Shown: one piece after another, positions 1 to 14,584 of the stretch | Position numbering within the stretch: position 1 is the stretch's first letter | How the letters are laid out: the number at the start of each line of letters is the position of its first letter | Source: Simkaniaceae bacterium | Lineage (GTDB): Bacteria > Chlamydiota > Chlamydiia > Chlamydiales > Simkaniaceae | Assembly: GCA_028281675.1 (NCBI GenBank) | Contig: JANQJL010000063.1 | Location: 1-43,462 of the forward strand | Direction of reading: 5' to 3' | DNA length: 43,462 bases | The notes under the pieces: model-generated | What the model saw: the letters and a program-made list of their open reading frames with translations, nothing else | Database searches by the model: none | What the model was told of the DNA's origin: nothing | Made by a program: the position numbers and the translations under genes

Positions 1-2
1 CC

Positions 3-212
3 TTCGCCAAGGTGGCCTCACCTTGGCTCGGCACTCAGCTTGTATCTCCGCTAATTCAAAAGGCCGCTGCCGCGAAATAGGTCGCATTCACGGGTATAAA
101 TGATCCGTATGATAGAGCCACAACCTTATTGGAACTGGTTAAAGTTGAAATGCGGTTTAGCAAAGCGGAAGGAGCAATAACAACGGAATCTATTGAAGAT
201 CTACAGTTATAA
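3..212 (+). pseudogene. Decayed fragment, possibly the C-terminal end of an adenylylsulfate kinase (CysC-like)
   Basis: Reading the frame of position 3 gives a run interrupted by one in-frame TAG at 78-80 and ending at TAA 210-212. Around the stop the peptide is LIQKAAAAK, stop, VAFTGINDPYD. This matches, without gaps, the spacing of the C-terminal APS-kinase motif (LYKKARAGE..NFTGID..Y in Escherichia coli CysC, recalled from memory). The residues upstream are less convincing and the palindrome at 6-27 lies within them. I read it as a pseudogene tail with no function. The match rests on about 20 residues, so the family is tentative; the rest of any gene would lie left of the window. Confidence 0.35.
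6..27. repeat. Perfect short inverted repeat
   Basis: A perfect 9-bp stem (GCCAAGGTG / CACCTTGGC) with a 4-base GCCT loop lies at the left edge. No U-tract follows it on either strand, so it does not look like an intrinsic terminator. It falls inside a decayed coding fragment and may be a small palindromic repeat inserted there, or may be chance. Only part of its surroundings is in the window. Confidence 0.5.
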
Positions 213-256
213 AGACTGCTTGACTCAAACAAAGAGAGTACCATAACGTCTTATAT

Positions 257-1465
257 ATGAAAAAGATTGTTATTGCAGGTGGGGGAATCTCAGGGCTTAC
301 AGCCCGCTACTATTTATCGAAACGGTATCCAACCGCTGAGATCACCTTATATGAAAAAAGTAACCGTTTAGGGGGGTGCGTTGAGTCGTCCCAAAAGCCC
401 TTCTTTTTTGAAAGAGGGCCCCGTACCTTTAAGGCTTCAAGAAGTGAGGCCCTCTTAGAGCTTATTGAAGGGGTCGGTCTTTCCGATCAAATGATCTATT
501 CAAGCAAGTGTGCCAATCGGCGGTATCTATGGAAGGATGGAAAACTTCAGAGACTCCATCTTTTTTCTCCTTTAATGCGTCCGGTGATCCCTTTTCTCCT
601 TAAAGAGTGGCGGCAGCCTTACCCATGGGAAGGGGATGAGACGATTGCTTCATTTGCAACACGTCGCTTTGGAAAGTATGCAGCAGAAACATTTTTCGAC
701 CCGCTAGCCCTTGGGATTTTTGCAGGAGATATCCATAAACTTTCGATCTCTACTTGTTTTCCAGAGCTCAAGGAAATGGAAATGCATTATGGGTCAATCA
801 CGAAGGCTTTTTTTAAGAAAAAGAGAAAGAAGAAGAAGCGGGGACTTTTTACTCTTAGAGGGGGGCTTCAAACATTGATCGACCGTTTAGTAGAAAAAGG
901 GGAAGGAGAAATCCATTTGAATACTCCATTAAAGTCGCTCGATGAGGAGGAGCTTATTTTAGCTGTTTCTGCACCCGCTGCAAAAAGGCTTTTTGAAGGA
1001 GATGCAAAAGCTCAGGAATTTTTTAATCAAATTGAGACAGCAAACTTAACGGTTGTGAATGTAGGGTTTAAGGAAAATTTTTTGAAATATAAAGGATTTG
1101 GATACCTTGTCCCAAGTTCTGAAAAAGAGAAGGTGTTAGGGGTCGTCTTTGACTCCTCAATTTTTCCTGAGCAAAGCCGCTCTGGAGAGACCCGTCTAAC
1201 AGTTATGTTAAAAGAGGGAGGGGTAGAAACAGCATTAGAAGGACTTCATAGACATTTAGGGATACAAAATGACCCTACAGAAGTTCATATAAAAGAATAT
1301 GCATCGATCATTCCTCAATATGGAGTGGGCCATCTTGAAAGGGTCAAAGCTTTTGAAAAACATCTAAACGAAAAGTATTCTCATATTACTTGCGTTGGAA
1401 ATTATTTTCGGGGCGCTTCGATAAATGCATGTGTGAATCAGAGCAGATCAAGATTTAAGATATAG
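257..1465 (+). CDS. hemG: Protoporphyrinogen oxidase (HemY-type; named hemG in chlamydiae)
   Basis: A 402-residue FAD enzyme of late haem synthesis that oxidises protoporphyrinogen IX, or in coproporphyrin-pathway organisms coproporphyrinogen III, probably at the inner membrane. The N-terminus has the dinucleotide-binding motif GGGISGLTA (residues 8-16), followed by the flavin-contacting segment NRLGG. The C-terminus keeps the FAD-binding block ending GNYFRGASINACV that is typical of this family. The length is a little short of Bacillus HemY (about 470). A very basic stretch, FFKKKRKKKKRG, sits just before the conserved LRGGLQTL segment. The gene converges on tspo, which starts on the other strand beyond its end and overlaps its last 28 bases. 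The pairing is sensible because TspO proteins bind porphyrins. Confidence 0.9.
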   Translation: MKKIVIAGGGISGLTARYYLSKRYPTAEITLYEKSNRLGGCVESSQKPFFFERGPRTFKASRSEALLELIEGVGLSDQMIYSSKCANRRYLWKDGKLQRLHLFSPLMRPVIPFLLKEWRQPYPWEGDETIASFATRRFGKYAAETFFDPLALGIFAGDIHKLSISTCFPELKEMEMHYGSITKAFFKKKRKKKKRGLFTLRGGLQTLIDRLVEKGEGEIHLNTPLKSLDEEELILAVSAPAAKRLFEGDAKAQEFFNQIETANLTVVNVGFKENFLKYKGFGYLVPSSEKEKVLGVVFDSSIFPEQSRSGETRLTVMLKEGGVETALEGLHRHLGIQNDPTEVHIKEYASIIPQYGVGHLERVKAFEKHLNEKYSHITCVGNYFRGASINACVNQSRSRFKI

Positions 1466-1932
1466 AAAACCCAATAGAATAACATTTTGTAAACAACCAT
1501 GACAAAGTAGGGAATGATGATAAGGGCTGCAGCACGTGATACCAAAAAGCTATAAAACATCAGAACGATCAAAGTCATAAACAAAAGGGTAATAAGAATT
1601 GGGGTCAAGACCGGAAGTGGAATATAAAAAAAACAGATCGGCCAAAGGATATTCAACACAAGTTGAACCACCCAAGCCCAAATTGCAAAGTTTCTTAAAT
1701 GGGTAGCTTTTTTTTCCCAAATAAGAGCTCCTGAAATCCCAATCAAAATATAGAGACATGTCCAAATAGGGATGATCACCTGCAGCGGAAGTGCCCATGG
1801 AAGATTTTCAGTTTTTGACTTAAAAAGCTCTAAGATCCCTTTTTCACTAATAAAAAAGGTAAAGAGTTCCACAGCAAGAACAAGGAAGAGGAAGATGACG
1901 AAGATTTCGACTTTTTGCTTTCTGGTATACAT
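1438..1932 (-). CDS. tspO: TspO/MBR family tryptophan-rich sensory protein
   Basis: A 164-residue integral membrane protein with five predicted hydrophobic helices, the normal size and topology for bacterial TspO. Family signatures are the segment PIWTCLYILIG near residue 55, equal to the PxWxxLYxLMG motif, and WVVQLVLNILWPICFF near residue 87. TspO proteins bind and help turn over or sense porphyrins, and they affect stress responses; their exact role differs between bacteria. Its 3' end overlaps the end of the protoporphyrinogen oxidase gene by 28 bases, so the two genes converge and antisense coupling at the overlap is possible. The link to tetrapyrrole metabolism is inferred from this position and from the family. 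Confidence 0.88.
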   Translation of the reverse strand: MYTRKQKVEIFVIFLFLVLAVELFTFFISEKGILELFKSKTENLPWALPLQVIIPIWTCLYILIGISGALIWEKKATHLRNFAIWAWVVQLVLNILWPICFFYIPLPVLTPILITLLFMTLIVLMFYSFLVSRAAALIIIPYFVMVVYKMLFYWVFYILNLDLL

Positions 1933-1973
1933 ATTAACTTTATTTATCTGAAAAAACAGATTTATTCAAGGGA

Positions 1974-3134
1974 TCATACAACAGATAAAGAGGGCTCTTC
2001 CTTAAGATTTTGAAGAGTTTTTAAAAGATAAGAAATATCCTCTTGAGTATGGAGGGCGTTTATACTTAAGCGGAGACGGGTTGCTCCTTGGGGAACAAGG
2101 GGAGGTTTAAGTGTTTTTATTAAAATCGATTTTTTTATCAGAGCGCTTGAAAGCCTTTCACATTCTAGTTCACTTGAGCAAAGAAGGGGAATAATGTGAG
2201 AGGTTCCACTTCCAGTGTCCCAATGGTTTTCCCTAAGGGATTCGCGAAGGGTCCGACTTAAGAGTTCAATCTTTTGCCTCTCCACCTGCATATCAGGAAT
2301 TAAATCGAGGGAGCCATTAATTGCTCCGAGAACTGCGGGAGGGAGCATTGTTATTTCCATTAGCTCTGGATTAAAGGCGAGCAAATATTCTCTTAGTAGA
2401 TGATTCGAGGCGATATAGGCTCCAAAGCTTCCCGATTGTTTTCCAAAACTCCCGGAGATGAGATCAACGCCTCTCCGGTGAGAAGCAAGTCCCATTCCAT
2501 GCTTTCCCATGACGCCAACGGTATTAGAGTCATCGATATAAGTAAGTGCTCCATATTCTTCAGCAATTTCTGTCAGTTTTTTTAAATCGGTGAACTCTCC
2601 GTCAATGCCAAAAAGGGATTCCGTCACAATCCATTTAATGGAATTTCCCCCAGTTTTCTCGATGAGTGAGGTGAGTTGGTCTAAATTATTATGCTCATAC
2701 CGAAAAACTTGTGCTCCTGAACTGACCGCTGCCTGAATTAAGTTATGATGGCAATACCGATCGATAAAAACCTGAGTCCGACTGCTTAAGAGAGTTGATA
2801 AAATCCGGTCATGCGTTTGGTAAGCCGAGGGAAAAAGGAGCGCTCCTTCTTTCCCCGCTAAATCGGCGAGCTTTTCTTCAACACTTCGGTGACATTCTAA
2901 ATGCTCAGTGACAAGGCGAGAGGAGGTTGTTCCAGCGCCCCATTCCAAAACATACTTAATCGTATTTTTTTTTACGTAAGGGTGTTGGGAAAGACCGAGA
3001 AAATCGTTTGAAGCAAAATTAATCTGACTCTCTGATTGTTTTTTCTCTAAATCGGCTACACACCGAAGTTGTCGGTATTCTTTTTGTTCTCGCTTTTTAT
3101 CAAGAGCGTTTTGGTAATAGTGATACTTATCCAT
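1974..3134 (-). CDS. 8-amino-7-oxononanoate synthase-like PLP enzyme (alpha-oxoamine synthase family)
   Basis: A 386-residue fold-type I PLP enzyme resembling BioF, which condenses an acyl thioester with an amino acid. The start at 3134 is chosen because MDKYHYYQNALDKKRE aligns with the usual BioF N-terminus; an upstream in-frame ATG at 3173 would add 13 residues with no family likeness and no Shine-Dalgarno. Visible features are NDFLGL near residue 43, HHNL (the HASL motif) at 129-132, the PLP-nitrogen aspartate in DDSN at 201-204, and the PLP lysine at K232 in GSFGKQSGSFG. BioF normally reads DDAHG where this protein reads DDSNT, so the conserved histidine is replaced by asparagine. No other biotin gene is nearby, so biotin synthesis is only one option; other alpha-oxoamine synthase substrates remain possible. 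Confidence 0.78.
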   Translation of the reverse strand: MDKYHYYQNALDKKREQKEYRQLRCVADLEKKQSESQINFASNDFLGLSQHPYVKKNTIKYVLEWGAGTTSSRLVTEHLECHRSVEEKLADLAGKEGALLFPSAYQTHDRILSTLLSSRTQVFIDRYCHHNLIQAAVSSGAQVFRYEHNNLDQLTSLIEKTGGNSIKWIVTESLFGIDGEFTDLKKLTEIAEEYGALTYIDDSNTVGVMGKHGMGLASHRRGVDLISGSFGKQSGSFGAYIASNHLLREYLLAFNPELMEITMLPPAVLGAINGSLDLIPDMQVERQKIELLSRTLRESLRENHWDTGSGTSHIIPLLCSSELECERLSSALIKKSILIKTLKPPLVPQGATRLRLSINALHTQEDISYLLKTLQNLKEEPSLSVV

Positions 3135-3252
3135 GACAAAAGGTAGATTACTCTTCTTGAAAAAAAAATTCAATCAGCAATTTGACAGAAATAAAGCTCC
3201 CAAAATAAAATGTTTGCCTCGTCAATCTAACTAACAAGAGAGTAGAGTTATT

Positions 3253-4500
3253 ATGGCTGAAATGACGGTAAAAACACCTCCTTTTATTGAAGGGAGCATT
3301 CCTATTGTGGTGCCAGAACAACCACCAAAAATTGATCTCCACCAAGCCTTTACTGCAATAGGGGAGAGGATGTGCCTTGTGAGAACCCTTAAGGGGCGCT
3401 GTACTGGAATTTTAATAGGGGAAAAAAAGCTTCTTGTCCCATTCCATGCGATTGCGCTCACAAAGGTCAAAGATCTTCCTGAGGGAAGAGGAGAATATAA
3501 GATCTACTCGATTGAAGTGGAGTATCAAGATACGACCTATAAAGCAATCCATTCCATTGAAAATTTAGAGCGGGCCTGTTACTACGATACTTGTGTTTTT
3601 CAGATTGGAGATGATGATTTTGAACCTAAAACCCCTCTTACGTATTGTATGGAAGCACCAAAGCTTGGAGAGAAGGTCTATTTTGGAGGATATCCCATAA
3701 CTCAAGAGGTCCCTTCTTTTCATAAAGCGCGAGTTTCTTCCGTAGAAGACGCAGAAGATGCTTTAAGTTTTCAAATTGATGGAGCAGTCCTTCCGGGAAA
3801 CTCCGGAGGACCTGTTTTTATTCAAAGAGGGAAAGAGCTCTTATTGATCGGAATGATCTTTGCAGAAATGGCAAGTGTTGATCGTGGGTTTGTAAGGGAA
3901 AAAGAGCGGGTTAAGGAAAGGTTGCCGAATGCTAGGGTAATCGTTCATGGCGTGGGTATTCTAAAAGTTATCAGTCATGTAGTAGATGCTGTATTTGATA
4001 ACTTAGCGACAGGAATTGGAAAAGTGATTAGCATTCGGCACGTACAAGGTCTCTCAGAAGAAGCACCACCACCACAGGCTCCTTCTCCATTTGCAATTGG
4101 TGGTTATCCAGTGATCAAGACCGAATGGCTTCCTGGGAAGTTAGCGACCGATCCCGAATATTTCGAATGGTACCACAGGCGGGTCAAAGGAAAGCCACTT
4201 TGTGGAGAGATTATTGGTAAAATTCTTCGTGCCAAAGATCAGATTGATAAAGGTGATGAAAAAAAGCTTCGCGCTTACTATGAATCTCACATTCTCAGTA
4301 GTGCTAGAAATGGGTACACCCCCGCTCAGAGAGCAACCTTAGAAAAATGGGAAACGCTAAGGAATAAAATCTTAGGGGCAAAGCCTAAAGCAATCAATAC
4401 GCATAAAAAAAGGTGGAGAGGGCTCATTGAAGCATACCGACCTAGTCTCCCAGAAGGGATCTATCCACAGCTACAGGAGGCCCTGCAGACCCTTTCTTGA
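3253..4500 (+). CDS. Trypsin-like serine protease with an extra C-terminal region
   Basis: A 415-residue protein whose first 230 residues look like a chymotrypsin/HtrA-fold protease. The triad is visible in order: H65 in VPFHAIAL, D112 in YYDTCVF and S184 in PGNSGGPVF. The remaining 180 residues follow a proline-rich linker near residue 270 and are helical and basic at the end; I do not recognise them, and there is no PDZ domain. No signal peptide is evident, so it is either cytosolic or exported by a non-Sec route such as type III secretion, which chlamydiae have. It stands alone, transcribed away from the AONS-like gene with a 118-base intergenic gap. Protease activity is a family inference and the substrate is unknown. 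Confidence 0.82.
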   Translation: MAEMTVKTPPFIEGSIPIVVPEQPPKIDLHQAFTAIGERMCLVRTLKGRCTGILIGEKKLLVPFHAIALTKVKDLPEGRGEYKIYSIEVEYQDTTYKAIHSIENLERACYYDTCVFQIGDDDFEPKTPLTYCMEAPKLGEKVYFGGYPITQEVPSFHKARVSSVEDAEDALSFQIDGAVLPGNSGGPVFIQRGKELLLIGMIFAEMASVDRGFVREKERVKERLPNARVIVHGVGILKVISHVVDAVFDNLATGIGKVISIRHVQGLSEEAPPPQAPSPFAIGGYPVIKTEWLPGKLATDPEYFEWYHRRVKGKPLCGEIIGKILRAKDQIDKGDEKKLRAYYESHILSSARNGYTPAQRATLEKWETLRNKILGAKPKAINTHKKRWRGLIEAYRPSLPEGIYPQLQEALQTLS

Positions 4501-4514
4501 TCGATCTTTTTAAA

Positions 4515-4561
4515 GTGACACCCGGGAATTCTCATCCCGTTTAGGGGATTGAGAGTGTCAC
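4515..4561. repeat. Long stem-loop after the protease gene
   Basis: GTGACAC at 4515-4521 pairs perfectly with GTGTCAC at 4555-4561. An inner stem pairs TCTCA with TGAGA and TCCC with GGGA around a 6-base loop. It starts 14 bases after the protease stop, where a terminator is expected, but no U-run follows on the plus strand. It also abuts an ATPase gene remnant, so it may be the scar of an insertion or deletion instead. Confidence 0.55.
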
Positions 4562-4591
4562 CTAACTATAGATAGTGTGATCATGAGATGA

Positions 4592-4744
4592 GCATCAGAG
4601 CAAGTCGCATTAGAAGACTTTTCCTTAGAAAAACTTCATGTGGTTTATCCAGGGGAAAAAAGCTATCAACTTTCAGAGAAAGTTTTTGTTGTAGGATTAA
4701 AAGAGTATTTATCAACGATTGTAAACGATCGGATGAGTCGTTGA
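4592..4744 (+). pseudogene. 3' remnant of an AAA ATPase of the DUF4143 type
   Basis: This frame opens just after a TGA at 4589-4591, has no start codon, and ends at TGA 4742-4744. It encodes the peptide VALEDFSLEKLHVVYPG, then EKSYQLSEKVFVVGLKEYL. The pattern LxxLxVVYPGxxxYxLxxxVxVxxL is the usual C-terminus of bacterial ATP-binding proteins with a DUF4143 domain. The upstream nine-tenths of such a gene are absent, so this is a relic. It overlaps by 33 bases the 3' end of the convergent CT296-like gene, so the C-terminus of that protein may have been altered by the same event. The family call is from memory of the motif. Confidence 0.5.
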
Positions 4745-5281
4745 GGTGAGGCGATCGCCAAATCCATAGTCGAGTTTTTTTAGAGCATGGAGGTTAGGGT
4801 CCCGTTTTTCTTGGATATAGATAGCAATGTCTGCGGCATAGGCAATGAAAAGGAGATGGCACCCTTCTGGAAAAGAGAGAGGGAAGAAGGGGTTAAAGAA
4901 AATGCCACTTCCCCTTTTTTTAGGGACGATAGGGTCTTCTCCATCGTAACGACTGAGTTGGATGACAAGCCCGCAAACCACTTTTCGAATGGAGCTCATC
5001 TCAATAAGATTCAGAGGCTCTTTAGAAACAGGGCCATCAATGAGCATGTCGTAACCGATCCGGAGGGGACGGATCTTCGAAAGGTTTGAGGCAACTTCAG
5101 CAAGACTTGGACTAAGGACAACCTTTTTAATCCGGCCATCAGTGCGCCAAAGATCGTGCTTAGTAGAGCCTATCGCATCTTCGATCCCATCAACTTCTTT
5201 GGGGGTGAGGAGATCTTCGAATTCAACGTAGTGGTGGTGGTGGAAGAAGTCATGGTGTTCTTTTGTGAGTCCAAAGCCCAT
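4712..5281 (-). CDS. CT296-like protein, possible 2-oxoglutarate oxygenase fold
   Basis: A 189-residue soluble protein with a histidine-rich N-terminus (KEHHDFFHHHHYVEFEDLL), which resembles the start of phytanoyl-CoA-dioxygenase-like proteins. Its position, divergent from rnc and next to radA, is that of CT296 in Chlamydia trachomatis. CT296 was first proposed to be an iron-dependent regulator, and its crystal structure was later reported to have a non-haem iron 2-oxoglutarate-oxygenase-like fold. I cannot find a clear HxD...H metal triad in this sequence, so catalysis is doubtful. The call rests on position plus general likeness. Only 60 bases separate it from rnc, so the two genes probably have back-to-back promoters in that gap. 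Confidence 0.68.
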   Translation of the reverse strand: MGFGLTKEHHDFFHHHHYVEFEDLLTPKEVDGIEDAIGSTKHDLWRTDGRIKKVVLSPSLAEVASNLSKIRPLRIGYDMLIDGPVSKEPLNLIEMSSIRKVVCGLVIQLSRYDGEDPIVPKKRGSGIFFNPFFPLSFPEGCHLLFIAYAADIAIYIQEKRDPNLHALKKLDYGFGDRLTSTTHPIVYNR

Positions 5282-5341
5282 TATTTACCTTTATACTTAT
5301 TTTTGTTAGAGTAATTATAACGATTATTGACCTAAAGTCCA

Positions 5342-6061
5342 ATGAATACATACGACCATCTCCAAAAGGGCGTTCCACTGATTGAAGCCCAAATTAACTA
5401 CACGTTTAAAGAAAAGTCTCTTATCGAGCTTGCCTTTATCCACCGCTCATTTACCAATGAAAATCGCGCCGTGATCGATGGTCATAACGAACGATTAGAA
5501 TTTTTAGGTGACGCGATATTAGGGCTTGTTGTGAGCGATTTTCTCTATTCCCACCTCCCTGATTATCCGGAAGGGGAGCTTTCCTACCTCCGTTCGAGAC
5601 TCGTCGAAGCACCTGCTTGTACCCTCTATCTCCAAAAGATCGATCTTGAAAAATTCCTTATGGTGGGAAAAGGGGAAGCGATGAATGCAGGGAAAGGGCG
5701 AGGAACGATCTTAGCCGATCTATTTGAAGCGATCATTGGAGCGATCTATATCGATGGGGGAATCGATGCAGTCCGCGCTTTTTTCTTTAATCATTTTAAA
5801 GAGGAAGTTCTTTCCATTATCGAGAAACCTCATCGCAATTGGAAAGCTGAGCTCCAAGACTATTGCCAAAAAAAATACCAAAAGCCTCCCGATTACGTTG
5901 TTCTAAAAGAGGAGGGTCCCGACCATTTAAAGACCTTCTACATTCAGGTTCATCTAGATGGTAAAGAGCTTGGAAGAGGAGAGGGCTCTTCAAAAAAAGA
6001 GGGAGAACAGGCCGCTGCAGAATCGGCCATTCAAGCGATGGAAAGAGGGCAAGGTGGTTAA
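5342..6061 (+). CDS. rnc: Ribonuclease III
   Basis: A 239-residue double-strand-specific endoribonuclease that processes rRNA precursors and some mRNAs. The catalytic domain has the signature ERLEFLGDAIL (residues 50-60, with E53 and D57) and the second metal site D126/E129 in DLFEAIIGAIYIDGG. A double-stranded RNA-binding domain fills about residues 165-235 and ends with the usual KKEGEQAAAESAI helix. Length and domain order are normal. The Shine-Dalgarno is weak. The radA start lies inside the last codons of rnc, so the two are translationally coupled, as in the chlamydial CT297-CT298 pair. Confidence 0.96.
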   Translation: MNTYDHLQKGVPLIEAQINYTFKEKSLIELAFIHRSFTNENRAVIDGHNERLEFLGDAILGLVVSDFLYSHLPDYPEGELSYLRSRLVEAPACTLYLQKIDLEKFLMVGKGEAMNAGKGRGTILADLFEAIIGAIYIDGGIDAVRAFFFNHFKEEVLSIIEKPHRNWKAELQDYCQKKYQKPPDYVVLKEEGPDHLKTFYIQVHLDGKELGRGEGSSKKEGEQAAAESAIQAMERGQGG

Positions 6062-7424
6062 GCAAAAATCTGTTTGGGTATGCACCGAGTGTGGCAATAA
6101 GCAGTTCAAGTGGACTGGTAGTTGCAATATCTGCAAAAACTGGAATACCCTCGCTGAGGAAATTGAAGCCCCAAAAAATGAAGGGCGGTTTGAGTCAAAA
6201 GCTCCTCACACGACAAAACCCGTTCTGATTGCAGAGGTTGATACCGCAAACTTTAAACGGGTCCCTACCGGTTACCAAGAGTTTGATCGCTTGATGGGAG
6301 GAGGAGTTGTTGAAGGGTCACTGAATCTCCTTGGGGGAGAGCCAGGAATCGGTAAGTCAACCATGCTTCTCCAACTCTCCAAACAATTTGCTGATCAAGG
6401 GCTCACCGTTCTCTATGTTTGTGGTGAAGAATCGGCTGAGCAAACCTCGCTTCGTGCAAAAAGGCTCGGCATAAAAAGTGATAAGATCTTTCTCTATAGT
6501 GAAACCCTCTTCTCCCAGATCCGTCCTCAGATTGACAAGATTCACCCCGATATTCTTATCGTTGATTCTGTGCAAATCGTCTATAAAAGTGAACTTCCCT
6601 CTGCTCCTGGTTCCGTGACACAAGTCCGTGAAATCGCCATGGAATGTATGCACATATCCAAGGGATCTGGAATCACCACCTTTTTGATTGGCCACGTCAC
6701 GAAAAGTGGAGATATTGCAGGTCCTCGCATTCTTGAACACATTGTCGATACCGTTCTCGAATTTGAAGGAGATCGGCAACATGGCTACCGTCTCATGCGT
6801 TCGGTAAAAAATCGTTTCGGTCCCACTGATGATGTCGCTCTTTTTCAAATGAATGAAAGGGGACTTGAAGAAATTCTCAACCCCTCTCTCACCTTTTTAG
6901 AAGAGCGGATGACTGATTCACCTGGCTCTGTTATTATCCCAACGATTGAAGGGACCCGCGCCCTTTTGATCGAAGTCCAAGCTCTCGTTGCCCCGAGCTC
7001 TTTTGCCAGTCCTAGCCGTCGCTCCACCGGGCTCGATCCCAAGCGTCTTAGTCTCCTCCTCGCCGTTTTAGAAAAGCGGATGGGTTACCAGCTCCATGCC
7101 CTCGATGTCTTTGTTTCTATCGCAGGGGGGATGAAAATCACCGAACCGGCTATTGATCTTGGAACGATTATTGCCATTGCCTCTTGTTACTGCAACAAGC
7201 CAGTCCCTTCTGACACCGTTGTGATGGGAGAAGTGGGGCTTGGCGGAGAGGTTCGTTCGATTCCCCGTATAGAGAGCCGCATTAAAGAGGCGATCAACCT
7301 CGGTTTTAAACGGATCATCTTCTCCACTAAAAATCTCAGGGGGCTGAGTAAAAAACTGACCGAAAAAATTGCCTTGCAAGGGGTGACCCACGTTGAAGAA
7401 GCAGTTAAGACACTTCTTGGTTAA
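6054..7424 (+). CDS. radA: DNA repair protein RadA (Sms)
   Basis: A 456-residue RecA-like ATPase that promotes branch migration in recombinational repair. The N-terminal zinc finger has C10, C13, C24 and C27; the Walker A motif GGEPGIGKS is at 94-102; the RadA-specific KNRFG motif follows the ATPase core; and the C-terminus is the Lon-like domain. I chose the GTG at 6054 because it leaves the zinc finger at residue 10, is preceded by an AGAGGG ribosome-binding site, and overlaps the rnc stop by 8 bases. The longer in-frame opening back to 5958 lies wholly inside rnc. Its last 20 bases overlap the end of the convergent repeat protein gene. Confidence 0.96.
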   Translation: MVKQKSVWVCTECGNKQFKWTGSCNICKNWNTLAEEIEAPKNEGRFESKAPHTTKPVLIAEVDTANFKRVPTGYQEFDRLMGGGVVEGSLNLLGGEPGIGKSTMLLQLSKQFADQGLTVLYVCGEESAEQTSLRAKRLGIKSDKIFLYSETLFSQIRPQIDKIHPDILIVDSVQIVYKSELPSAPGSVTQVREIAMECMHISKGSGITTFLIGHVTKSGDIAGPRILEHIVDTVLEFEGDRQHGYRLMRSVKNRFGPTDDVALFQMNERGLEEILNPSLTFLEERMTDSPGSVIIPTIEGTRALLIEVQALVAPSSFASPSRRSTGLDPKRLSLLLAVLEKRMGYQLHALDVFVSIAGGMKITEPAIDLGTIIAIASCYCNKPVPSDTVVMGEVGLGGEVRSIPRIESRIKEAINLGFKRIIFSTKNLRGLSKKLTEKIALQGVTHVEEAVKTLLG

Positions 7425-8922
7425 CCAAAGCTTTGATTTCAGCAATTCTTTTTAGTGCAGTTTCTCGAGCTGCATTCCAACCTGACCGATTCCATGTAAA
7501 AGGAGTCGTGTAGATTTTATTTTCCACTTCCTTTTCGGCTTTTTCAAGATAAGCTTTAGCTTTTTCCTGATCAACTGAAAGAAGTAGTTTTGCTGCAGTG
7601 CAAAGAAGATCGACCCATTTAGAAGCAGTATCAAGAGAGTTAGTCTCGTTGAAATGACCATGGAAATAATCTTCGAGCTGATCGATTAAGGCATGCTTAA
7701 TCACTTCGGCTTTTTCAAGATAGGCTTCAGATTTTTCTTTATCAATAGGACGGAGAAACTCAGCCGCGGTCTGGTGAAGTTCCACCCACTTAGAAGCTTT
7801 TTCAGCAGGATCAGTCTCTTTGGAGTGCTCATGAAAATAATCTTCGAGTTCTCCGTTTAAGGCATATTTAATCACTTCGGCTTTTTGAAGGTAAAAGTTA
7901 GATTTTTCCTGATCTATGGAAAGAAGCAACTCTCCTGCATTATTATAAAGTTCCATCCATTTAAGGGCTTTTTCAGGGGGCTCTAATTTTTTGAAACGCT
8001 CATTAAAGTAATCCTCGATCTGATCTAGTGATCCATATTTAGCCACATAAGGTAAAAAATGAATCAGAGGATCTGTTTTTACTTGATGGTTCCAAAATTT
8101 TCCAATAGAAATGCTCTGGAAAAAGATTCCTAATACGTGGCTTTTGAATACTTTATTCAAAAGCTCTGTTTCTTTTTTCTCCTCTAGATAATTGAGGAGT
8201 TTCAGCGTACCTGTAAACAAGGCTCCATTATAAAAAAGTCTTAGCGCTGGATGTTCTCTTCTAAGCCCTAAGCTTAGGATTACTAAATGCACCTCTGCCT
8301 CAGTCGATAAAAGAGCGGTACTTAAGGTAGGAAATCCATTTTTTTCTTCAAATTCATAAACTTGAATAAATGGGTTGATATATGGGGAAGGAGTAGTCGG
8401 TTGATTAGAAAAGGGAGAGAGAAGTTTCATTACTGCAGTTACATGGAACCCAAGAGTCTTTAAAAACTCAACATAAGTTTTAAAAACTTCATTTTTGAGT
8501 TCCTTATGTTTACCTTCAAAAGGGAGCGTTTCATTCTTCTTATCCATGCGAATTCTGATTTCTTGAGCAAGTTCTTTCAGATCGATTCCTGCATTTTTGC
8601 AGTCATCTAATTGCTCTTGAAGAAGATTAATGTCGAGCTCAAAAACCTTCATTAAAGTAGGCATTAAAGATTCTAAAGGCTTTTGATTCTTAATAAGGGC
8701 AGTAACCTCAGCGTCGACTTTTTTCTTTCTTCCCAAATTTTTTAGATTAGAAGAAGTTTCTCGGAGAAGGGCTTCTTCTGCCCTCATCCGCGCCTCACTC
8801 TCGCCCGGTTTTGCCTCCTGCTGAGGAGTGACTATTGGCTCACTGGTCTCTTTGGTTTCTTCACTTGTAATAGTGGGAAGCTCAGTAGTAGCTCCTGTGT
8901 CAATCGCTGAAACACCTGACAT
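7405..8922 (-). CDS. Helical protein with three 57-residue repeats, function unknown
   Basis: A 505-residue soluble protein I do not recognise. The start at 8922 has a good AAGGAG site; an upstream ATG at 9033 would add 37 residues without one. The N-terminus (about 1-60) is rich in T, E and P and looks disordered. The C-terminal third has three tandem repeats starting at about residues 299, 359 and 416. Each has the landmarks xLEDYF, then KASKWxELxxTAxxLL, then DxEKxxAYLEKAE, with an exact 57-residue period measured between the EDYF motifs. The helical pattern resembles TPR or TPR-like solenoids, so protein binding is the likely role. No signal peptide or membrane segment is seen. It lies between radA and a divergent four-gene cluster in a lineage-specific insert. 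Confidence 0.75.
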   Translation of the reverse strand: MSGVSAIDTGATTELPTITSEETKETSEPIVTPQQEAKPGESEARMRAEEALLRETSSNLKNLGRKKKVDAEVTALIKNQKPLESLMPTLMKVFELDINLLQEQLDDCKNAGIDLKELAQEIRIRMDKKNETLPFEGKHKELKNEVFKTYVEFLKTLGFHVTAVMKLLSPFSNQPTTPSPYINPFIQVYEFEEKNGFPTLSTALLSTEAEVHLVILSLGLRREHPALRLFYNGALFTGTLKLLNYLEEKKETELLNKVFKSHVLGIFFQSISIGKFWNHQVKTDPLIHFLPYVAKYGSLDQIEDYFNERFKKLEPPEKALKWMELYNNAGELLLSIDQEKSNFYLQKAEVIKYALNGELEDYFHEHSKETDPAEKASKWVELHQTAAEFLRPIDKEKSEAYLEKAEVIKHALIDQLEDYFHGHFNETNSLDTASKWVDLLCTAAKLLLSVDQEKAKAYLEKAEKEVENKIYTTPFTWNRSGWNAARETALKRIAEIKALVNQEVS

Positions 8923-9019
8923 AACTTTTGTTCTCCTTAAAGAAAGTTTCGGGAAACGATTATACCTAATCAGTCCTTTTTTAGCGAACTCCAACTCGCA
9001 ACTCGCGTAAACTTTATTC

Positions 9020-9048
9020 TTGAATTTTTTCAAAAAGGGCTTTAACCT
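9020..9048 (+). promoter_or_regulatory. Possible sigma-66/70 promoter for the island gene cluster
   Basis: TTGAAT at 9020-9025 and TAACCT at 9043-9048 are separated by exactly 17 bases, and the first gene starts 41 bases downstream with a GAGAGGA ribosome-binding site. Both boxes deviate from consensus, and the region is AT-rich, so this is only a candidate. Confidence 0.3.
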
Positions 9049-9088
9049 ATTGGGAAATTTTTCTTAAATCTAATGATGAGAGGATATT

Positions 9089-9751
9089 ATGCCAGGACTA
9101 GCAGAGGTTACATTAACAGCGTCGACGGAGGTAAGTAGATGGATGGCACAGGGGTTACGTGAAAACCCTGAGTCCCTAAAGAATGTAAGTAGAGAATTCA
9201 TTTTAAAAGTTTGGAAGCATGCGAATCAATCTCCACCCCTTTGGATAACCTGTGGGACAACTTGTGTGCTAGCAGTGGTGGCTAAGTATTGTTTTAAGGA
9301 CAGCCTTCAACAAGACGTTAAAGAAGCTAATGATACGGGAAAGAAGGTGACTTGCGAAATCAAGGGGATAAGAGCTGACCTTCAAGGGATTAAGTTGGAA
9401 CGAGAGGGTGAGATAGAAACAATTGGTAGGATTGCTCAAGCGCTTATTGAGCAAAATAGTGATTTGCAAAGGCTAAGAGATGGTCAGTTGGTGTCTAATA
9501 GTGAGCTTCACGGGCTCATAGAAAGCATGACTAAGCATCTTGGTTTTTATGAGAAAAGAGTCGTGGAATTGATAGACTTATCTGGAAAACAAAGTGAGTT
9601 GGCAAAAGGGCTTGCAGCCTTTATTGAAAGTCAAAATCAGGAGGGAAGGGCGATTAATGAAGAAACCAAAGAGCGTTTAAAAATGGTAAATATGATTTAT
9701 GAGATGATAGTAACCCTTCTCCCCCCAAGCACGGTTGGACAAAGTGTTTGA
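9089..9751 (+). CDS. Membrane-anchored coiled-coil protein, first gene of the island cluster
   Basis: A 220-residue protein of unknown function. An N-terminal soluble part of about 50 residues is followed by one hydrophobic segment (LWITCGTTCVLAVVAKYCF, about 51-69), then a long charged helical region (about 75-210) with heptad-like spacing suggesting a coiled coil. The topology, with no cleavable signal, fits an anchored scaffold or tether. The start has a clear GAGAGGA site. The next gene begins before this one ends, so they are co-translated. It shares its general plan (one hydrophobic region, then coiled coil) with the next gene, but I see no clear sequence identity between the two. Confidence 0.7.
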   Translation: MPGLAEVTLTASTEVSRWMAQGLRENPESLKNVSREFILKVWKHANQSPPLWITCGTTCVLAVVAKYCFKDSLQQDVKEANDTGKKVTCEIKGIRADLQGIKLEREGEIETIGRIAQALIEQNSDLQRLRDGQLVSNSELHGLIESMTKHLGFYEKRVVELIDLSGKQSELAKGLAAFIESQNQEGRAINEETKERLKMVNMIYEMIVTLLPPSTVGQSV

Positions 9752-10490
9752 TTCATTTGTATATCGATATGGAAAATCGATGGCGTTGGGGATTATTAGG
9801 ATTCGACCTAGAGATGTTGTAGAGTATGGAGAGGAATCAGTCAAATATACAGTTTTATCTCTTTTTTCTTTTCCTCCAGATCCCTTCCCACTCATTACAT
9901 TGATTGCTGTAATTTTTATAACGGCAACAGCAATTTCTAAAGTTGCTCAAGGTAAAGGATTGAGGGTGAGAGAATGGGTTCTTGTTATTGGAATATGGGG
10001 AGGACATCATGCGATGAAGGAAAATCGTGTGAGAAAAGAACTAAAGAAAACAGTTGAGGCCTTTTCTGCTGAGCTGAATCATGCTGAGGAACAACTCTTA
10101 AGATGGAAACAAGTAATCGAAGACGAAGAACGGAAAATAGAAACAATGAGGGATGCATCGGGCTTGCTTCAGAAGACTTCATCGCAACTTAAAAGAGCCC
10201 TTGCTATTTTTAAAGAGCAGTTAGACCTTCAGAAAGGGCTTTGCGGAGAATATCTTAAGTTAGTTCTAAAAATGGATGAAGGAAGTCTTCTTACTCAAGG
10301 AACAATCAAACAGCAGCAAGTAAATGCAGAAAAAATCTCTCAAATGATTGCCAGGCAAATTCAAGAGCTTAAGGAAGCTAGAGGAGAACAATTAAGGATG
10401 ATCAAGCTGCAGAAAGAAGGAGAGGCAAGACTAATTTTTCAAATCGAAAGATGGAGAGAGATGCGAAGGGAAAAAGCGGATGTCGAATAA
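9735..10490 (+). CDS. Membrane-anchored coiled-coil protein, second gene of the island cluster
   Basis: A protein of about 251 residues with no recognised domain. Hydrophobic residues cluster at about 38-72 (LSLFSFPPDPFPLITLIAVI, then FITATAIS) and again at EWVLVIGIWGG near residue 84. This paired pattern is reminiscent of chlamydial inclusion-membrane proteins but not diagnostic. Residues 95-250 form a highly charged, probably coiled-coil tail. The first candidate start is a TTG at 9735 overlapping the preceding gene by 17 bases; a GTG at 9744 and an ATG at 9780 are alternatives, and none has a strong Shine-Dalgarno. Its stop overlaps the start of the next gene by 11 bases, so the cluster is transcribed as a unit. 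Confidence 0.68.
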   Translation: MDKVFDSFVYRYGKSMALGIIRIRPRDVVEYGEESVKYTVLSLFSFPPDPFPLITLIAVIFITATAISKVAQGKGLRVREWVLVIGIWGGHHAMKENRVRKELKKTVEAFSAELNHAEEQLLRWKQVIEDEERKIETMRDASGLLQKTSSQLKRALAIFKEQLDLQKGLCGEYLKLVLKMDEGSLLTQGTIKQQQVNAEKISQMIARQIQELKEARGEQLRMIKLQKEGEARLIFQIERWREMRREKADVE

Positions 10491-12801
10491 AGTCAGTGAA
10501 GCAAGCCGATTATTTCGATTTGAGATGGAGCCATGGGCTTTTTCAAAGGTGAAGAATCAGGCCGAGGTGTTGTCAAAGGTTGCTAAGCTAAAAATTCATC
10601 AATTGCTTCCAGAAATTCCTCTAAATTGGATTGGTGAAGGGATTTTTTTTTCAACGCGTGAGCTTGCTTTTGATACGATGCTATTTGGTGAAATTGCTTT
10701 TGGCTTTTTTATTGATTCTCTAAATTCAAAAGTTTGGCGTCAATTAACCAATATCGTGTTGGATGATCTTGCAGATCGCGTTTTTCAACTTTATACGGAA
10801 AGTTCTCTGTGGCCTAAATCTCCCTATAAAATGTTTCTCAATTCGACAAGTCCGAAGGAAGCAATGAAGTATCTAATGAATAGATCTCCAGATTTTAAAG
10901 CGGAAATGGCTGATGAGGGAAGTAGAGAGGCACAAGAGGTCTTTCTGATACGAAATTTTATCTTGGGGAAGTTAATAAGGGAAGGTAGGTTAGGAGAACT
11001 TAAAAATAGAAGAGAGCGAAATGGAGAGAGCAAAAAACCATTAGGCAAGATTGTGGAGGTTCACTTAGATTTTATTTATAAATTAGGATCTGCAGAATGC
11101 TCTCGAGTGACTGCAATACGGAATGAAGGGATCAAGTGTAAAAAGGTGCTGGACAGTAGTATTCCGTTAATCGATTCTCAAGAAAATGAAGAAGCTCGCT
11201 CAGAGGAACAAGAGATCCTTAATTTTCAATTTTCAGCAAAAGAGCTAGGGTTTGAAGTTCCCCTTGAGCTCGCAAGGCGAATTGTAGTGAGTAAGACGAA
11301 AAAAGGGGAGGCTTCGTGGTTTCATACTGGGGTTCGAACAACAGCTACTCTTGCAAGTCGAGTTCTCCCTTATATTCTCCCTATGCTCAATGATGAAGCT
11401 AAGAGTGCGGTTAGGAGGTATCAATCTATTCTAGGAGGACTAAGGGAGGTTTCTCAAAGCCAAACAGAAACGATGCATAAGCAACGGATCCTTGGTGATC
11501 AATTAAGACAGATCAAAGCGGAGCTAGAGACAGTTGCTGCTGATCAAAGACGGATTGCAGAATTGCTCCCATTGCTTTCTGCTGAAACTCAGCGAAATCA
11601 TAACGAAGTTATGCTTTCTTTGGCAATCATTACAGAAGAAGTTGTTTTGTCTCGGGCAGCAGTTTTTACTATGCTTGATCGTGGAGGAACTGCTTGTCGT
11701 CATATTCGTGCGCAACTTAGGCACTATAGAGGATATAATGTTGTATTGAATCGGTTTATTTCTTATGCTGCTTTTGTAAACTTTTATAAAAGAGAGCTTC
11801 TTTATATGGAAATTGGGCTGAAGGAGCTTCCACTTGCTATCTCTTTTTCGAAGTCAAATAATGTAGTGCTTAGTGAGGCTACACTGTTTTCTCATTACTT
11901 CAATGAGCTGTTGAACTTCTACTTAGCAAACTTAGAATATGATGAGGAAAAAGCGTTTGAATTTTTACTAGCTTCTCCCCAGAACGTTGAAAGTTTAGAG
12001 CACTACGTAGAAACATTTCATAAGAAAGAAAAGTCAGTATTACCTGAATGGATGAGAGAGCATTTTCAAAAGCCATTAAAACCTATCTTATCGACTCTTT
12101 ATGATGTTGCGGTTTTAATTGATTATGCAAAATCCGTTCGCACTCTCCACTATTTTTATGAGATGTTAGAAAACCTTCCAGGCGGTCCCCTTCTTCCAAT
12201 TAGTAGGTTGGGAGAACATAGTCATAATGTAACAGGGATAGAACTCCTTCAAAATATATTTATAAAACTAGAGATTGCTGTTGCCCAACTCAATTTATTA
12301 GCGGGTAATGGTATTCTTCCTGCTCTTTATTCATCCTTCAGAAAAGGGAAAAGCTTAGATTTATTAGCTGCCAACTCCATCCTAGCAAAAAATTTTTTGA
12401 TATTTGCCTTTAGAAAGAGACTGAAAGAGAAAAAGAGGCGACTGACTGATTACTATTTTCCTTATAAAATGAGTGAGAATCCTCAATATCTTCAAAGGAT
12501 TCTTGGAGAAGACTGGAATTTTAGGTGGGATAAGGATAAGGAGTTATGGGGGATTGAATTTGCGAAAGGCAAGAGACTTACTTTCCTTCCAACACCTGTT
12601 GAGGTGATTACAGGATCTCTGGAAATCCATCCACAGATTCCAGAGCTACATATTATAAGAAAACATATTCTTAGAGAGCTTGCAGGCTATCAAAAAATGG
12701 ATTTTGAGAAAGAACCGATAAAACTTGAGCATTACGGACTTGTTCTTACTTCTTTATTTTTTAGACAAGTGCAGTCGCCAATGGAAAGAAGTGCATTATA
12801 A
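10480..12801 (+). CDS. Large helical protein of unknown function, third gene of the island cluster
   Basis: A 773-residue protein without a motif I recognise. It looks soluble and alpha-helical. Residues of about 305-385 (RYQSILGGLREVSQSQTETM onward through LGDQLRQIKAELETVAADQRR) form a probable coiled coil. There is no signal peptide; one or two moderately hydrophobic stretches (for example VVLNRFISYAAFVNF) are not convincing membrane helices. It overlaps the preceding coiled-coil membrane protein gene by 11 bases, and the next gene follows after 29 bases. The shared operon with two membrane-anchored coiled-coil proteins suggests a multi-part complex assembled at a membrane; this is inference from position and predicted structure only. 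Confidence 0.72.
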   Translation: MSNKVSEASRLFRFEMEPWAFSKVKNQAEVLSKVAKLKIHQLLPEIPLNWIGEGIFFSTRELAFDTMLFGEIAFGFFIDSLNSKVWRQLTNIVLDDLADRVFQLYTESSLWPKSPYKMFLNSTSPKEAMKYLMNRSPDFKAEMADEGSREAQEVFLIRNFILGKLIREGRLGELKNRRERNGESKKPLGKIVEVHLDFIYKLGSAECSRVTAIRNEGIKCKKVLDSSIPLIDSQENEEARSEEQEILNFQFSAKELGFEVPLELARRIVVSKTKKGEASWFHTGVRTTATLASRVLPYILPMLNDEAKSAVRRYQSILGGLREVSQSQTETMHKQRILGDQLRQIKAELETVAADQRRIAELLPLLSAETQRNHNEVMLSLAIITEEVVLSRAAVFTMLDRGGTACRHIRAQLRHYRGYNVVLNRFISYAAFVNFYKRELLYMEIGLKELPLAISFSKSNNVVLSEATLFSHYFNELLNFYLANLEYDEEKAFEFLLASPQNVESLEHYVETFHKKEKSVLPEWMREHFQKPLKPILSTLYDVAVLIDYAKSVRTLHYFYEMLENLPGGPLLPISRLGEHSHNVTGIELLQNIFIKLEIAVAQLNLLAGNGILPALYSSFRKGKSLDLLAANSILAKNFLIFAFRKRLKEKKRRLTDYYFPYKMSENPQYLQRILGEDWNFRWDKDKELWGIEFAKGKRLTFLPTPVEVITGSLEIHPQIPELHIIRKHILRELAGYQKMDFEKEPIKLEHYGLVLTSLFFRQVQSPMERSAL

Positions 12802-12830
12802 TATTTTAGCAATCAACAAAGGAGTTCAAT

Positions 12831-13247
12831 ATGGCAATACCATCCCAATCTACAACTTTTAAACCCATTCCAACGCTGGATTTAACACAAGTTCATCAAC
12901 AGTTCAAGAGGCAGGAGTATCCCCAAGCTGGCATTAGAGTAGCCAATCATGTGATTCATAATCGTAGAGCGATTCAAATTAATCGAAGGGAATTAATAAG
13001 ATTAATGAGTGAGGTAGTAAAAATGCAAGAGGCTGTAAATAAAGTTATTGCAGAACTGAATGATAATTTAGTTAAAACCCTCGGAGCTCAGCTTACTAAA
13101 GTAACCAGTGAGTCGCTACTCAATAATCCGGAAATCTTTTCTCTCCTTCTTCAAGCAATTGGAGAAAAACAAAAAGAGATGTATGAGCAGAGGATAGAAG
13201 CGCTTGAACAAAAAGTCAAAGAACTTTCAATGAAGAGTCGTTTGTAA
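12831..13247 (+). CDS. Small coiled-coil protein, last gene of the island cluster
   Basis: A 138-residue protein of unknown function, with an AAGGAG ribosome-binding site just before the ATG. The first 45 residues are polar and may be disordered; residues of about 55-80 and 108-136 have heptad-like spacing (MYEQRIEALEQKVKEL). No signal or membrane segment is seen. It lies 29 bases after the 773-residue protein gene and is the last of the four co-directional genes. A weak hairpin (TGCCCTTT/AAAGGCA) follows its stop. Its size and coils would suit an accessory or chaperone-like partner of the larger cluster proteins, but nothing in the sequence proves this. Confidence 0.68.
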   Translation: MAIPSQSTTFKPIPTLDLTQVHQQFKRQEYPQAGIRVANHVIHNRRAIQINRRELIRLMSEVVKMQEAVNKVIAELNDNLVKTLGAQLTKVTSESLLNNPEIFSLLLQAIGEKQKEMYEQRIEALEQKVKELSMKSRL

Positions 13248-13315
13248 TTGCCCTTTCAAAAGGCATTCAGTTATGCTAAAAAATTTAGGATAGAATGCTG
13301 GGAGCATTTGCATTG

Positions 13316-14584
13316 ATGAAAATAAAGATTGGAGCAAGGGGATCAAAACTTTCTAGAAAACAGGTAGAAGAGGTGATGGAGGAGCTCGGTGAGGATTATG
13401 ATGTCGAATGGACTGAGACGGTGGGGGATCGTGACCTAAAGGCCTCTTTGGAGGTAATGGATAAGACCGATTTTTTTACCCGCGAAATTGATAAAATGGT
13501 GCTAGAAGGAGTGTGCGATGTAGGAGTTCACTCTGCAAAAGATCTGCCAGAGCCATTGCCGAAGGGGCTAAAGATGATGGCACTAACAAAGGGTGTTGAT
13601 CCTAGTGATCGTTTAGTCATGCGGGATGGGGACAGTTTTGAAAAGTTAAGAGTCGATGCTATGATCGGATCGTCATCACTCAGGCGAAGTGAAGCCATAA
13701 AACAATTAAGACCTGACTTGCAATGCGTTGAAGTGCGTGGCCCTGTTGATAAACGGCTCGAATTGCTCGATCGAAAAGAAATTGATGGACTCGTTGTGGC
13801 AGAAGCAGCGCTCATTCGTTTGGGATTAACAGGAAGAAATCGGATTGCTCTTCCTGGAGAAACCGCTCCTTTTCAGGGAAAACTTGCGGTGATTGGGCGG
13901 GAGGCGGACGAAAAGATGGAAGTCCTTTTTGGAAAAATAGATAGTCGAAAAAAGGGAAAAGCCCTTTATTTAGGCTTAAATCCTAAATCCTATGGAAAGG
14001 AAGTCTTTCACCTTCCCATTATTGAAATCATTCCAAGGGACTTTAACCGTCCTGAAATCGTTTGTGCTTTTGCAGATATCCCCGATTACACCCATATTGT
14101 TTTTACGAGCAAGAGCGCTGTTGAAATCTTCTTCTCTTGTTTAAAAAAGCAGGGTTTTACCATAGATGATCTTCAGAGAAAAGAGATTATTGCTATTGGA
14201 AAGGTTACAGCGCGACACATTGAAGAGAGGGGTGTAAAAGTCGATAAGGTTGCAGAGGATGAAGTTCAAGAGGGGATTATTCACCTTTTGGCACTGGAGG
14301 ATTTGGATCAGGCTTATCTCTTTCTTCCTCAGTCATCTAGAGCGCGATGCGCCTTGATTCAGTCGTTAATGCTTAGGAATATAAGGCATCAGCGGTGCTT
14401 CCTATATGATACGAAACCAAAATTTCCTGCTGTCAAGCCCGATTTAGAAAATTTTGACGAAATTATTTTTACGAGTCCATCAACAGTTGAGGCATTTAGA
14501 GAAATTTTTGGTAGAATCCCTACGTTTAAGAAAATCACAGCGATAGGGCCAGTCACACAGAGCAAATTAAATATTTATTTATAG
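13316..14584 (+). CDS. hemC: Fused porphobilinogen deaminase / uroporphyrinogen-III synthase
   Basis: A 422-residue fusion of two successive haem-pathway enzymes. Residues 1-205 are HemC domains 1 and 2: GARGSKLSRKQ at 6-16, the active-site VHSAKD (D76), SSLRR (R123, R124) and RGPVDKRL near 141. HemC domain 3, which carries the GGC cysteine that holds the dipyrromethane cofactor, is not visible; the sequence passes directly into a HemD-like part (about 212-422, with HIVFTSKSAVEIFF and IIFTSPSTVEAF). I start at 13316 because MKIKIGARGSKL is the normal HemC N-terminus; an in-frame ATG at 13295 would add seven residues. Chlamydial HemC proteins are short as I recall, so the missing domain may be a lineage trait. 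The position after radA matches CT299. Confidence 0.87.
   Translation: MKIKIGARGSKLSRKQVEEVMEELGEDYDVEWTETVGDRDLKASLEVMDKTDFFTREIDKMVLEGVCDVGVHSAKDLPEPLPKGLKMMALTKGVDPSDRLVMRDGDSFEKLRVDAMIGSSSLRRSEAIKQLRPDLQCVEVRGPVDKRLELLDRKEIDGLVVAEAALIRLGLTGRNRIALPGETAPFQGKLAVIGREADEKMEVLFGKIDSRKKGKALYLGLNPKSYGKEVFHLPIIEIIPRDFNRPEIVCAFADIPDYTHIVFTSKSAVEIFFSCLKKQGFTIDDLQRKEIIAIGKVTARHIEERGVKVDKVAEDEVQEGIIHLLALEDLDQAYLFLPQSSRARCALIQSLMLRNIRHQRCFLYDTKPKFPAVKPDLENFDEIIFTSPSTVEAFREIFGRIPTFKKITAIGPVTQSKLNIYL

What the first reader, a model, noticed from the sequence alone, without database searches (positions are those of the whole stretch)
7405..13247. Lineage-specific island between radA and hemC with a divergent repeat protein and a four-gene coiled-coil cluster
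In Chlamydia trachomatis the homologues of radA and hemC are adjacent (CT298, CT299, recalled). Here 5.9 kb of unrecognised sequence separates them: a 57-residue-repeat protein on one strand and four tightly coupled genes on the other (overlaps of 17 and 11 bases, then a 29-base gap). Two of the four are membrane-anchored with long coiled coils, one is a 773-residue helical protein with a central coil, and one is a small coil protein. Four coupled structural-looking genes without enzymes suggest a membrane-associated assembly, possibly for the host interface. Of the regions in this window it is the best candidate for an undescribed system.
Basis: partly seen in the sequence, partly recalled or inferred. 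Interest (0 to 1): 0.72.

Follow-up and report, generated by a model that had tools for sequence, protein, structure and literature searches.

The report
Chlamydial coiled-coil gene cluster, variable locus
Between two ordinary housekeeping genes of a marine-type chlamydia sits a compact set of four unfamiliar genes that one relative keeps in the same order at the same place while several close relatives have other genes or nothing there, which suggests a swappable kit for dealing with the host rather than a core machine.

Summary
The island is real. RadA and hemC lie within 250 bp of each other in 90 of 97 chlamydial genomes where both were placed on one contig; here 5.9 kb separates them. Within the genus the locus varies: about 121 bp in three congeners, an MFS transporter in one, 6.9 kb of other cargo in another, flanked by a perfect 54-bp repeat of the radA 3' end. 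Genes B-C-D-E recur in the same order directly upstream of hemC in congener G067. C, D and E are homologous; B agrees only in position, size and a weak hydrophobic helix. Island proteins are 20-30% identical to those of G067, flanking proteins 63-86%. The cluster is modular: congener G061 has a B-like gene and C before an Rhs gene, without D, and a close relative lacks them at that site; D relatives occur without detectable C elsewhere, several beside effector-like genes. Repeat gene A is independent. No searched family library explains A-E. Best reading: a membrane-anchored pair (B, C) and a large helical protein with a small partner (D, E) acting at the host or inclusion surface. Function is inferred; no usable structure model and no secretion test. 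New variant of a known kind; moderate interest.

The parts
7405..8922 (-). gene A: 505-aa repeat protein, three 57-residue repeats (7534-8046), helical; independent of B-E; overlaps the radA 3' end by 20 bases
   Evidence: ORF and start; repeats; relatives in 4 other genomes of 147; single-sequence AlphaFold2 mean pLDDT 55.8, repeat part mostly 60-75, all helical
9089..9751 (+). gene B: 220-aa protein, one weak hydrophobic helix at 51-69, probable coil behind it
   Evidence: ORF; hydropathy; positional counterpart in G067, sequence similarity not above noise
9780..10490 (+). gene C: probable start ATG 9780 (236 aa; 251 aa from TTG 9735); two-lobed hydrophobic region about residues 50-92 (numbered from TTG 9735), then a long coil; Inc-like layout
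   Evidence: homologues in G067 (blastp 2e-16) and G061 (profile 4e-13); mean hydropathy of three homologues has two peaks
10480..12801 (+). gene D: 773-aa helical protein; conserved coil and C-terminal helical domain (about residues 315-740)
   Evidence: relatives in G067 and G017, distant ones in G150, G162, G067 C2, G017 C45
12831..13247 (+). gene E: 138-aa coil protein, partner of D
   Evidence: homologue in G067 (blastp 5e-5; best of 471 proteins by shuffle score); small proteins at the same place after D in G017 C120 and G162
5958..7424 (+). radA, left border (core gene)
   Evidence: Pfam; found in 139 of 147 genomes
13295..14584 (+). hemC-hemD fusion, right border (core gene)
   Evidence: Pfam Porphobil_deam and HEM4; found in 123 of 147 genomes

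Best explanation
The radA-hemC interval is a site of variable cargo in this chlamydial genus (nearest named relative: the Xenoturbella bocki symbiont, placed in Simkaniaceae). In this genome it carries an unrelated repeat gene (A) and a four-gene operon made of two modules. B and C are small proteins with an N-terminal hydrophobic region and a coiled coil; D is a large helical protein and E its small coil partner. The most likely working is that C, and probably B, sit in a membrane, most likely the host-facing inclusion membrane after type III export in the manner of Inc proteins, with coils exposed, and hold or dock D/E there as a host-facing assembly. Shown: locus variability, conserved order, homology of C, D and E, modular presence. 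Inferred: membrane, export, complex and host role.
For: Same order and place in G067 at 20-30% identity while flanking rnc, radA, hemC, accD are 75, 86, 63 and 83% identical. Conserved tight spacing. Modularity: B-like+C before Rhs in G061, absent from the matching 116-bp gap in G045. D relatives next to a caspase-like TPR protein (G067 C2), a RicinB lectin-like protein (G017 C45), a RasGAP-like protein (G162) and, 3.0 kb on in G017 C120, an Rhs protein. C has the two-lobed hydrophobic region plus coil that Dehoux et al. 2011 (PMC3048545, abstract and passages seen) use to define putative Inc proteins. The genome has a type III/flagellar exporter homologue (FHIPEP).
Against: No secretion signal test and no reliable fold: D alone gave pLDDT 34. 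B is not an Inc by the two-helix criterion and its hydrophobic helix is no stronger than one in the soluble control rnc; C's lobes are weak, and in G061 only just reach threshold. B homology is not above noise. The InaC hit of C has E 0.7, which is nothing. FHIPEP does not tell type III from flagellar exporter. D neighbours are few (five loci) and chosen by following hits, not a controlled enrichment. Window D groups with G017 D rather than with the congener's D, weakly (0.85 and 74), which speaks against simple descent of the cluster at this locus.
Confidence: 0.38

Rival explanations
1. A toxin-like membrane-active complex: the D family inserts into membranes (its distant relatives carry glycine-rich hydrophobic stretches before each coil) and partners give binding or anchoring, aimed at host or competitor cells.
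For: Hydrophobic stretches at 84-102 and 398-416 of the G017 C45 relative, 104-122 of G150, 71-115 of G162; neighbours with RicinB lectin-like, Rhs and caspase domains.
Against: Thresholds were lax (two soluble controls, rnc and accD, pass too); window D lacks an N-terminal stretch of this kind; no PDB or Pfam relative.
Confidence: 0.17
2. An internal conflict or defence module (anti-phage, or plasmid/phage maintenance) rather than a host-directed one.
For: Patchy presence, modular swapping, occurrence at a variable locus, one D relative beside a caspase-like TPR protein.
Against: PADLOC gave one weak hit (B to DpdC, E 0.003, whose region covers B's hydrophobic helix and coil) and nothing for A, C, D, E; D not found in 50,697 phage and 72,556 plasmid records nor in IMG/VR by three queries.
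Confidence: 0.12
3. A cell-envelope or cell-shape structure of the bacterium itself (inner-membrane coiled-coil scaffold).
For: Two probable membrane proteins with coils, no enzyme, no signal peptide seen by eye in B-E; operon structure.
Against: Absent from most congeners and very fast-diverging, unlike core envelope genes; BC beside Rhs in G061.
Confidence: 0.18
4. Degenerating or selfish passenger genes with no joint function.
For: Fast divergence; lower G+C (0.37-0.42 against 0.43-0.48 in flanking genes); patchy distribution.
Against: All frames intact in two distant carriers with the same order and tight coupling at 20-30% identity, which needs purifying selection on the frames.
Confidence: 0.15

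Closest known systems
Chlamydial Inc (inclusion membrane) proteins
   Same: C has a two-lobed hydrophobic region with a short loop followed by a coil; chlamydia-specific as far as searched, very diverse in sequence, no enzyme
   Different: lobes weak; B has one helix only in the window and G067; D and E have no such region; export not tested
Rhs polymorphic-toxin loci of the same genus
   Same: B-like and C genes sit 50 bp upstream of an Rhs gene in G061; patchy, fast-changing cargo
   Different: D and E are not Rhs proteins; at the matching Rhs locus of G045 B and C are missing, so they are no fixed part of Rhs loci
Integration of cargo at the 3' end of a conserved gene
   Same: in G083 a 54-bp direct repeat of the radA 3' end flanks its own 6.8-kb insert at this very locus
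   Different: no such repeat in the window, G067 or G078; no integrase recognised in the island

Membership tests
[quoted passage not shown]
   mean hydropathy of three homologues peaks at residues 59 (1.50) and 83 (1.36) with a dip at 74 (-0.46); single sequences reach the 19-mer threshold for one lobe only; no topology predictor available
Inc proteins | two-lobed hydrophobic region (gene B) | tested here: not met
   one lobe only in the window and G067
Inc proteins | type III secretion signal and location in the inclusion membrane | not testable with these tools
   needs an export or localisation experiment
Inc proteins | coil-rich (common, not required) | tested here: inconclusive
   C passes the periodicity test in the window and G067, not in G061; control hemC also passes
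Rhs polymorphic toxins | RHS/YD repeats in the large protein | tested here: not met
   no Pfam family for D up to E 1
Known anti-phage systems (PADLOC-DB 2.0.0) | match to a system's core protein | tested here: not met
   no hit for A, C, D, E; B to DpdC at E 0.003 only
Integrative element at the radA 3' end | direct repeat of the attachment site at both ends | tested here: not met
   window best local score 21 against a shuffle maximum of 30; G083 102 against 27; 54-bp repeat in G083
TPR-like alpha-solenoid (gene A) | tandem helix-pair repeats matching a TPR-type model | tested here: inconclusive
   three helical 57-residue repeats, but no Pfam TPR match

The most novel reading that the evidence does not exclude
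A previously undescribed two-module system of chlamydiae: an exchangeable membrane-anchored coiled-coil pair (B, C) that docks different host-directed or toxin-like cargo, either the helical D/E pair or an Rhs protein, and is passed between loci and lineages.
Probability: 0.2. Interest if true: 0.7.

Novelty: new variant of a known kind. Interest (0 to 1): 0.42.

Why it matters
Host-interface gene sets of environmental chlamydiae are mostly uncharted. If B-E form one assembly, the cluster gives a named protein family (D with partner E, without a match in the libraries searched) and a defined swap site to follow, and it would show that chlamydiae exchange host-facing membrane platforms as cassettes. 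If not, it still documents a variable locus between two otherwise adjacent core genes.

Tried and rejected
D alone was folded by AlphaFold2: pLDDT 34 throughout, so no fold search was made with it. A alone reached 55.8 and no fold search was made either. D-family profiles against the PDB gave nothing or only coil-like matches at E 0.05 and above. Matches dropped as coil or chance: G140, G020 (the SMC-like ORF of L036) and G106; G041 (8.9e-7), G210 and G080, which match only part of the coil region and were not followed; ten genomes at E 6.7e-4 and above, of which I looked only at G150, where the hit is in an 880-aa chain-length-type protein by eye; four genomes at E 7.9e-4 and above. The strong matches of the profile searches include the rows that built the profile, so they are no independent proof; the independent finds are G067 and G017, G150 and G162 and G061.

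Homology of B across genomes: rejected on sequence (G067 B ranks 32 of 471, G061 B 61); kept as positional. Homology of E to the partners in G017 and to the coil tails of neighbours in G017 C45 and G067 C2: not above noise by pairwise score; the G162 partner ranks next after the G067 E, but coils inflate such scores. A beta-trefoil or fascin reading of the repeat protein in G067 C2 found no support and is dropped. Promoter and terminator scans were at shuffle level. IMG/VR gave no relative. Papers: searches; no paper held radA, hemC and chlamydia together, which says little since the library is partial.

Full report
What is there. The window lies in a 1.88-Mb chlamydial genome (G000, 94% complete). 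Its nearest named relative found is the chlamydia of Xenoturbella bocki (hemC 62% identical), which its authors place in Simkaniaceae (PMC11521371, passages seen). Between radA and the hemC-hemD fusion lie gene A on one strand and B, C, D, E on the other. A probably starts at ATG 8922 and C at ATG 9780; with these starts A and B are divergent with 166 bp between them, B-C has a 28-bp gap, C-D an 11-bp overlap, D-E a 29-bp gap. A carries three 171-nt repeats in exact register.

Family searches. Pfam, NCBIfam, PHROGs and PADLOC give no convincing family for A to E; the best are coil-type chance hits (for instance B to DpdC, E 0.003; C to THOC7, E 0.03). Profiles of D against the PDB give no convincing hit.

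The locus varies. In 147 genomes of the order (a sample drawn evenly from a larger group) radA was found in 139 and hemC in 123. I could place both on one contig in the listings for 97; the hemC listing was cut, so some were missed. The median distance is 19 bp and 90 of 97 are at most 250 bp. The seven others are the window (5.9 kb), G078 (1.6 kb, one MFS transporter, Pfam E 2e-51), G083 (6.9 kb: PLD-like, subtilase and unknown genes), G129, G099, G012 (contents not examined) and G127 (far apart). Six of the ten genomes of the window's genus in that sample have both genes on one contig: three with about 121 bp and three with inserts. In the other four (G067, G112, G119, G123) the two genes lie on different contigs. 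In G083 a perfect 54-bp repeat that includes the last 51 bases of radA flanks the insert, which looks like a past integration at the radA 3' end. The window, G067 and G078 show no such repeat, so the way B-E arrived is unknown.

The cluster is conserved elsewhere. D as a single query found relatives in 2 of the 146 other genomes. In G067, same genus, the relative lies on a contig where B', C', D', E' stand in the same order and end 42 bp before hemC; that contig stops 515 bp upstream of B', and radA sits 302 bp from the end of another contig, as expected if the insert lies between them. Blastp gives D 2e-78 (27%), C 2e-16 (24%), E 5e-5 (22%); B is not significant. B and B' agree in length (220, 215) and in the place of a hydrophobic helix (51-69, 45-63). 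The same two genomes share rnc, radA, hemC and accD at 75, 86, 63 and 83%. So the island proteins change far faster than their neighbours, or were exchanged.

It is modular. The C profile found one more genome, G061 of the same genus (E 4e-13). There a B-like gene (two hydrophobic lobes in its N-terminal part by eye, one passing threshold) and C stand 50 bp before an 1803-aa Rhs gene (RHS_repeat E 1e-56), between it and a conserved upstream gene; in G045 the same two flanking genes are 116 bp apart and the pair is missing. G061 has no D match and an empty radA-hemC gap. Whether the pair was gained or lost there is not settled. Nine of 11 genomes of the genus have Rhs repeats, but only three genomes of 232 have a strong C match. 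Conversely D relatives exist in G017 (two), G150, G162 and a second time in G067, where no C match lies beside them; G017, G150 and G162 have no C match at all, with the caution that G017 is 76% complete and its C120 contig starts inside D. In G017 C120 and G162 a small coil-type protein follows D at once (26-bp overlap, 36-bp gap), as E does here. So D-E and B-C behave as two modules that happen to be joined in the window and G067.

History. In a tree of four core proteins the window groups with G078, G112 and G119, G067 with G083, and G061 with G045 and the Xenoturbella symbiont. The three carriers of C therefore fall in three clades, each with relatives that lack it. In the D tree window, G067 and G017 C120 form one clade (support 100), and within it the window pairs with G017, of another family, with weak support (0.85 and 74). 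This points to old exchange or repeated loss; it does not fit a single lineage-specific gain.

Gene A. Its relatives occur in 4 of 146 other genomes (G083, G128, G134, G111), none of which has a D match, while G067, with BCDE, has no A match. In G083 and G134 they lie among genes unlike B-E. A is a helical repeat protein and a separate passenger.

How it may work. C has the best claim to a membrane (hydropathy 2.19) and, averaged over three homologues, the two-lobed profile followed by a coil that defines putative Inc proteins (PMC3048545, abstract and passages). B's hydrophobic helix is no stronger than one in the soluble control rnc. D's relatives lie beside genes of eukaryote-like or toxin-like character: caspase-TPR, RicinB lectin-like, RasGAP, Rhs. 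From this I infer a host-facing assembly in which B/C anchor and D/E act, at 0.38. A toxin-like, a structural, a conflict-system and a passenger reading remain open. No structure, secretion or interaction evidence was obtainable here.

Novelty. The gene families look undescribed in the libraries searched, and the swap of a membrane pair between a D/E context and an Rhs context is unusual; but variable loci with fast-changing, coil-rich, probably secreted proteins are a known trait of chlamydiae. I file it as a new variant of a known kind.

Noticed in passing
L041 (G083) 2793-2846 and 9615-9668: A perfect 54-bp direct repeat of the radA 3' end flanks a 6.8-kb insert with PLD-like and subtilase genes: a possible attachment site at radA in this genus.
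   Followed up: partly
L066 (G061) 7161-8582 against L088 (G045) 6201-6316: A B-like and C gene pair is present before an Rhs gene in one genome and absent between the same two flanking genes in a close relative.
   Followed up: yes
L035 (G067 C2) 2196-9774: A caspase-domain TPR protein, a 1220-aa D-family protein with C-terminal repeats of about 45 residues, and a 449-aa protein with the same repeats stand in a row; the repeats match no Pfam or PDB family convincingly.
   Followed up: partly
L034 (G162) 2070-10007: A RasGAP-like protein, an unnamed 603-aa protein, a D-family protein and a small coil partner lie close together.
   Followed up: partly
L085 (G000 C45) 1-5940, L087 (G000 C58) 533-10371: In the window's own genome Rhs genes are followed by small proteins with an N-terminal hydrophobic stretch, in two tandem copies on C58; similar proteins follow Rhs genes in other congeners.
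   Followed up: no
L042 (G078) 3086-4462, L044 (G112) 2529-3977: An MFS transporter follows radA in both; in G112 hemC is elsewhere, so the locus was rearranged.
   Followed up: partly
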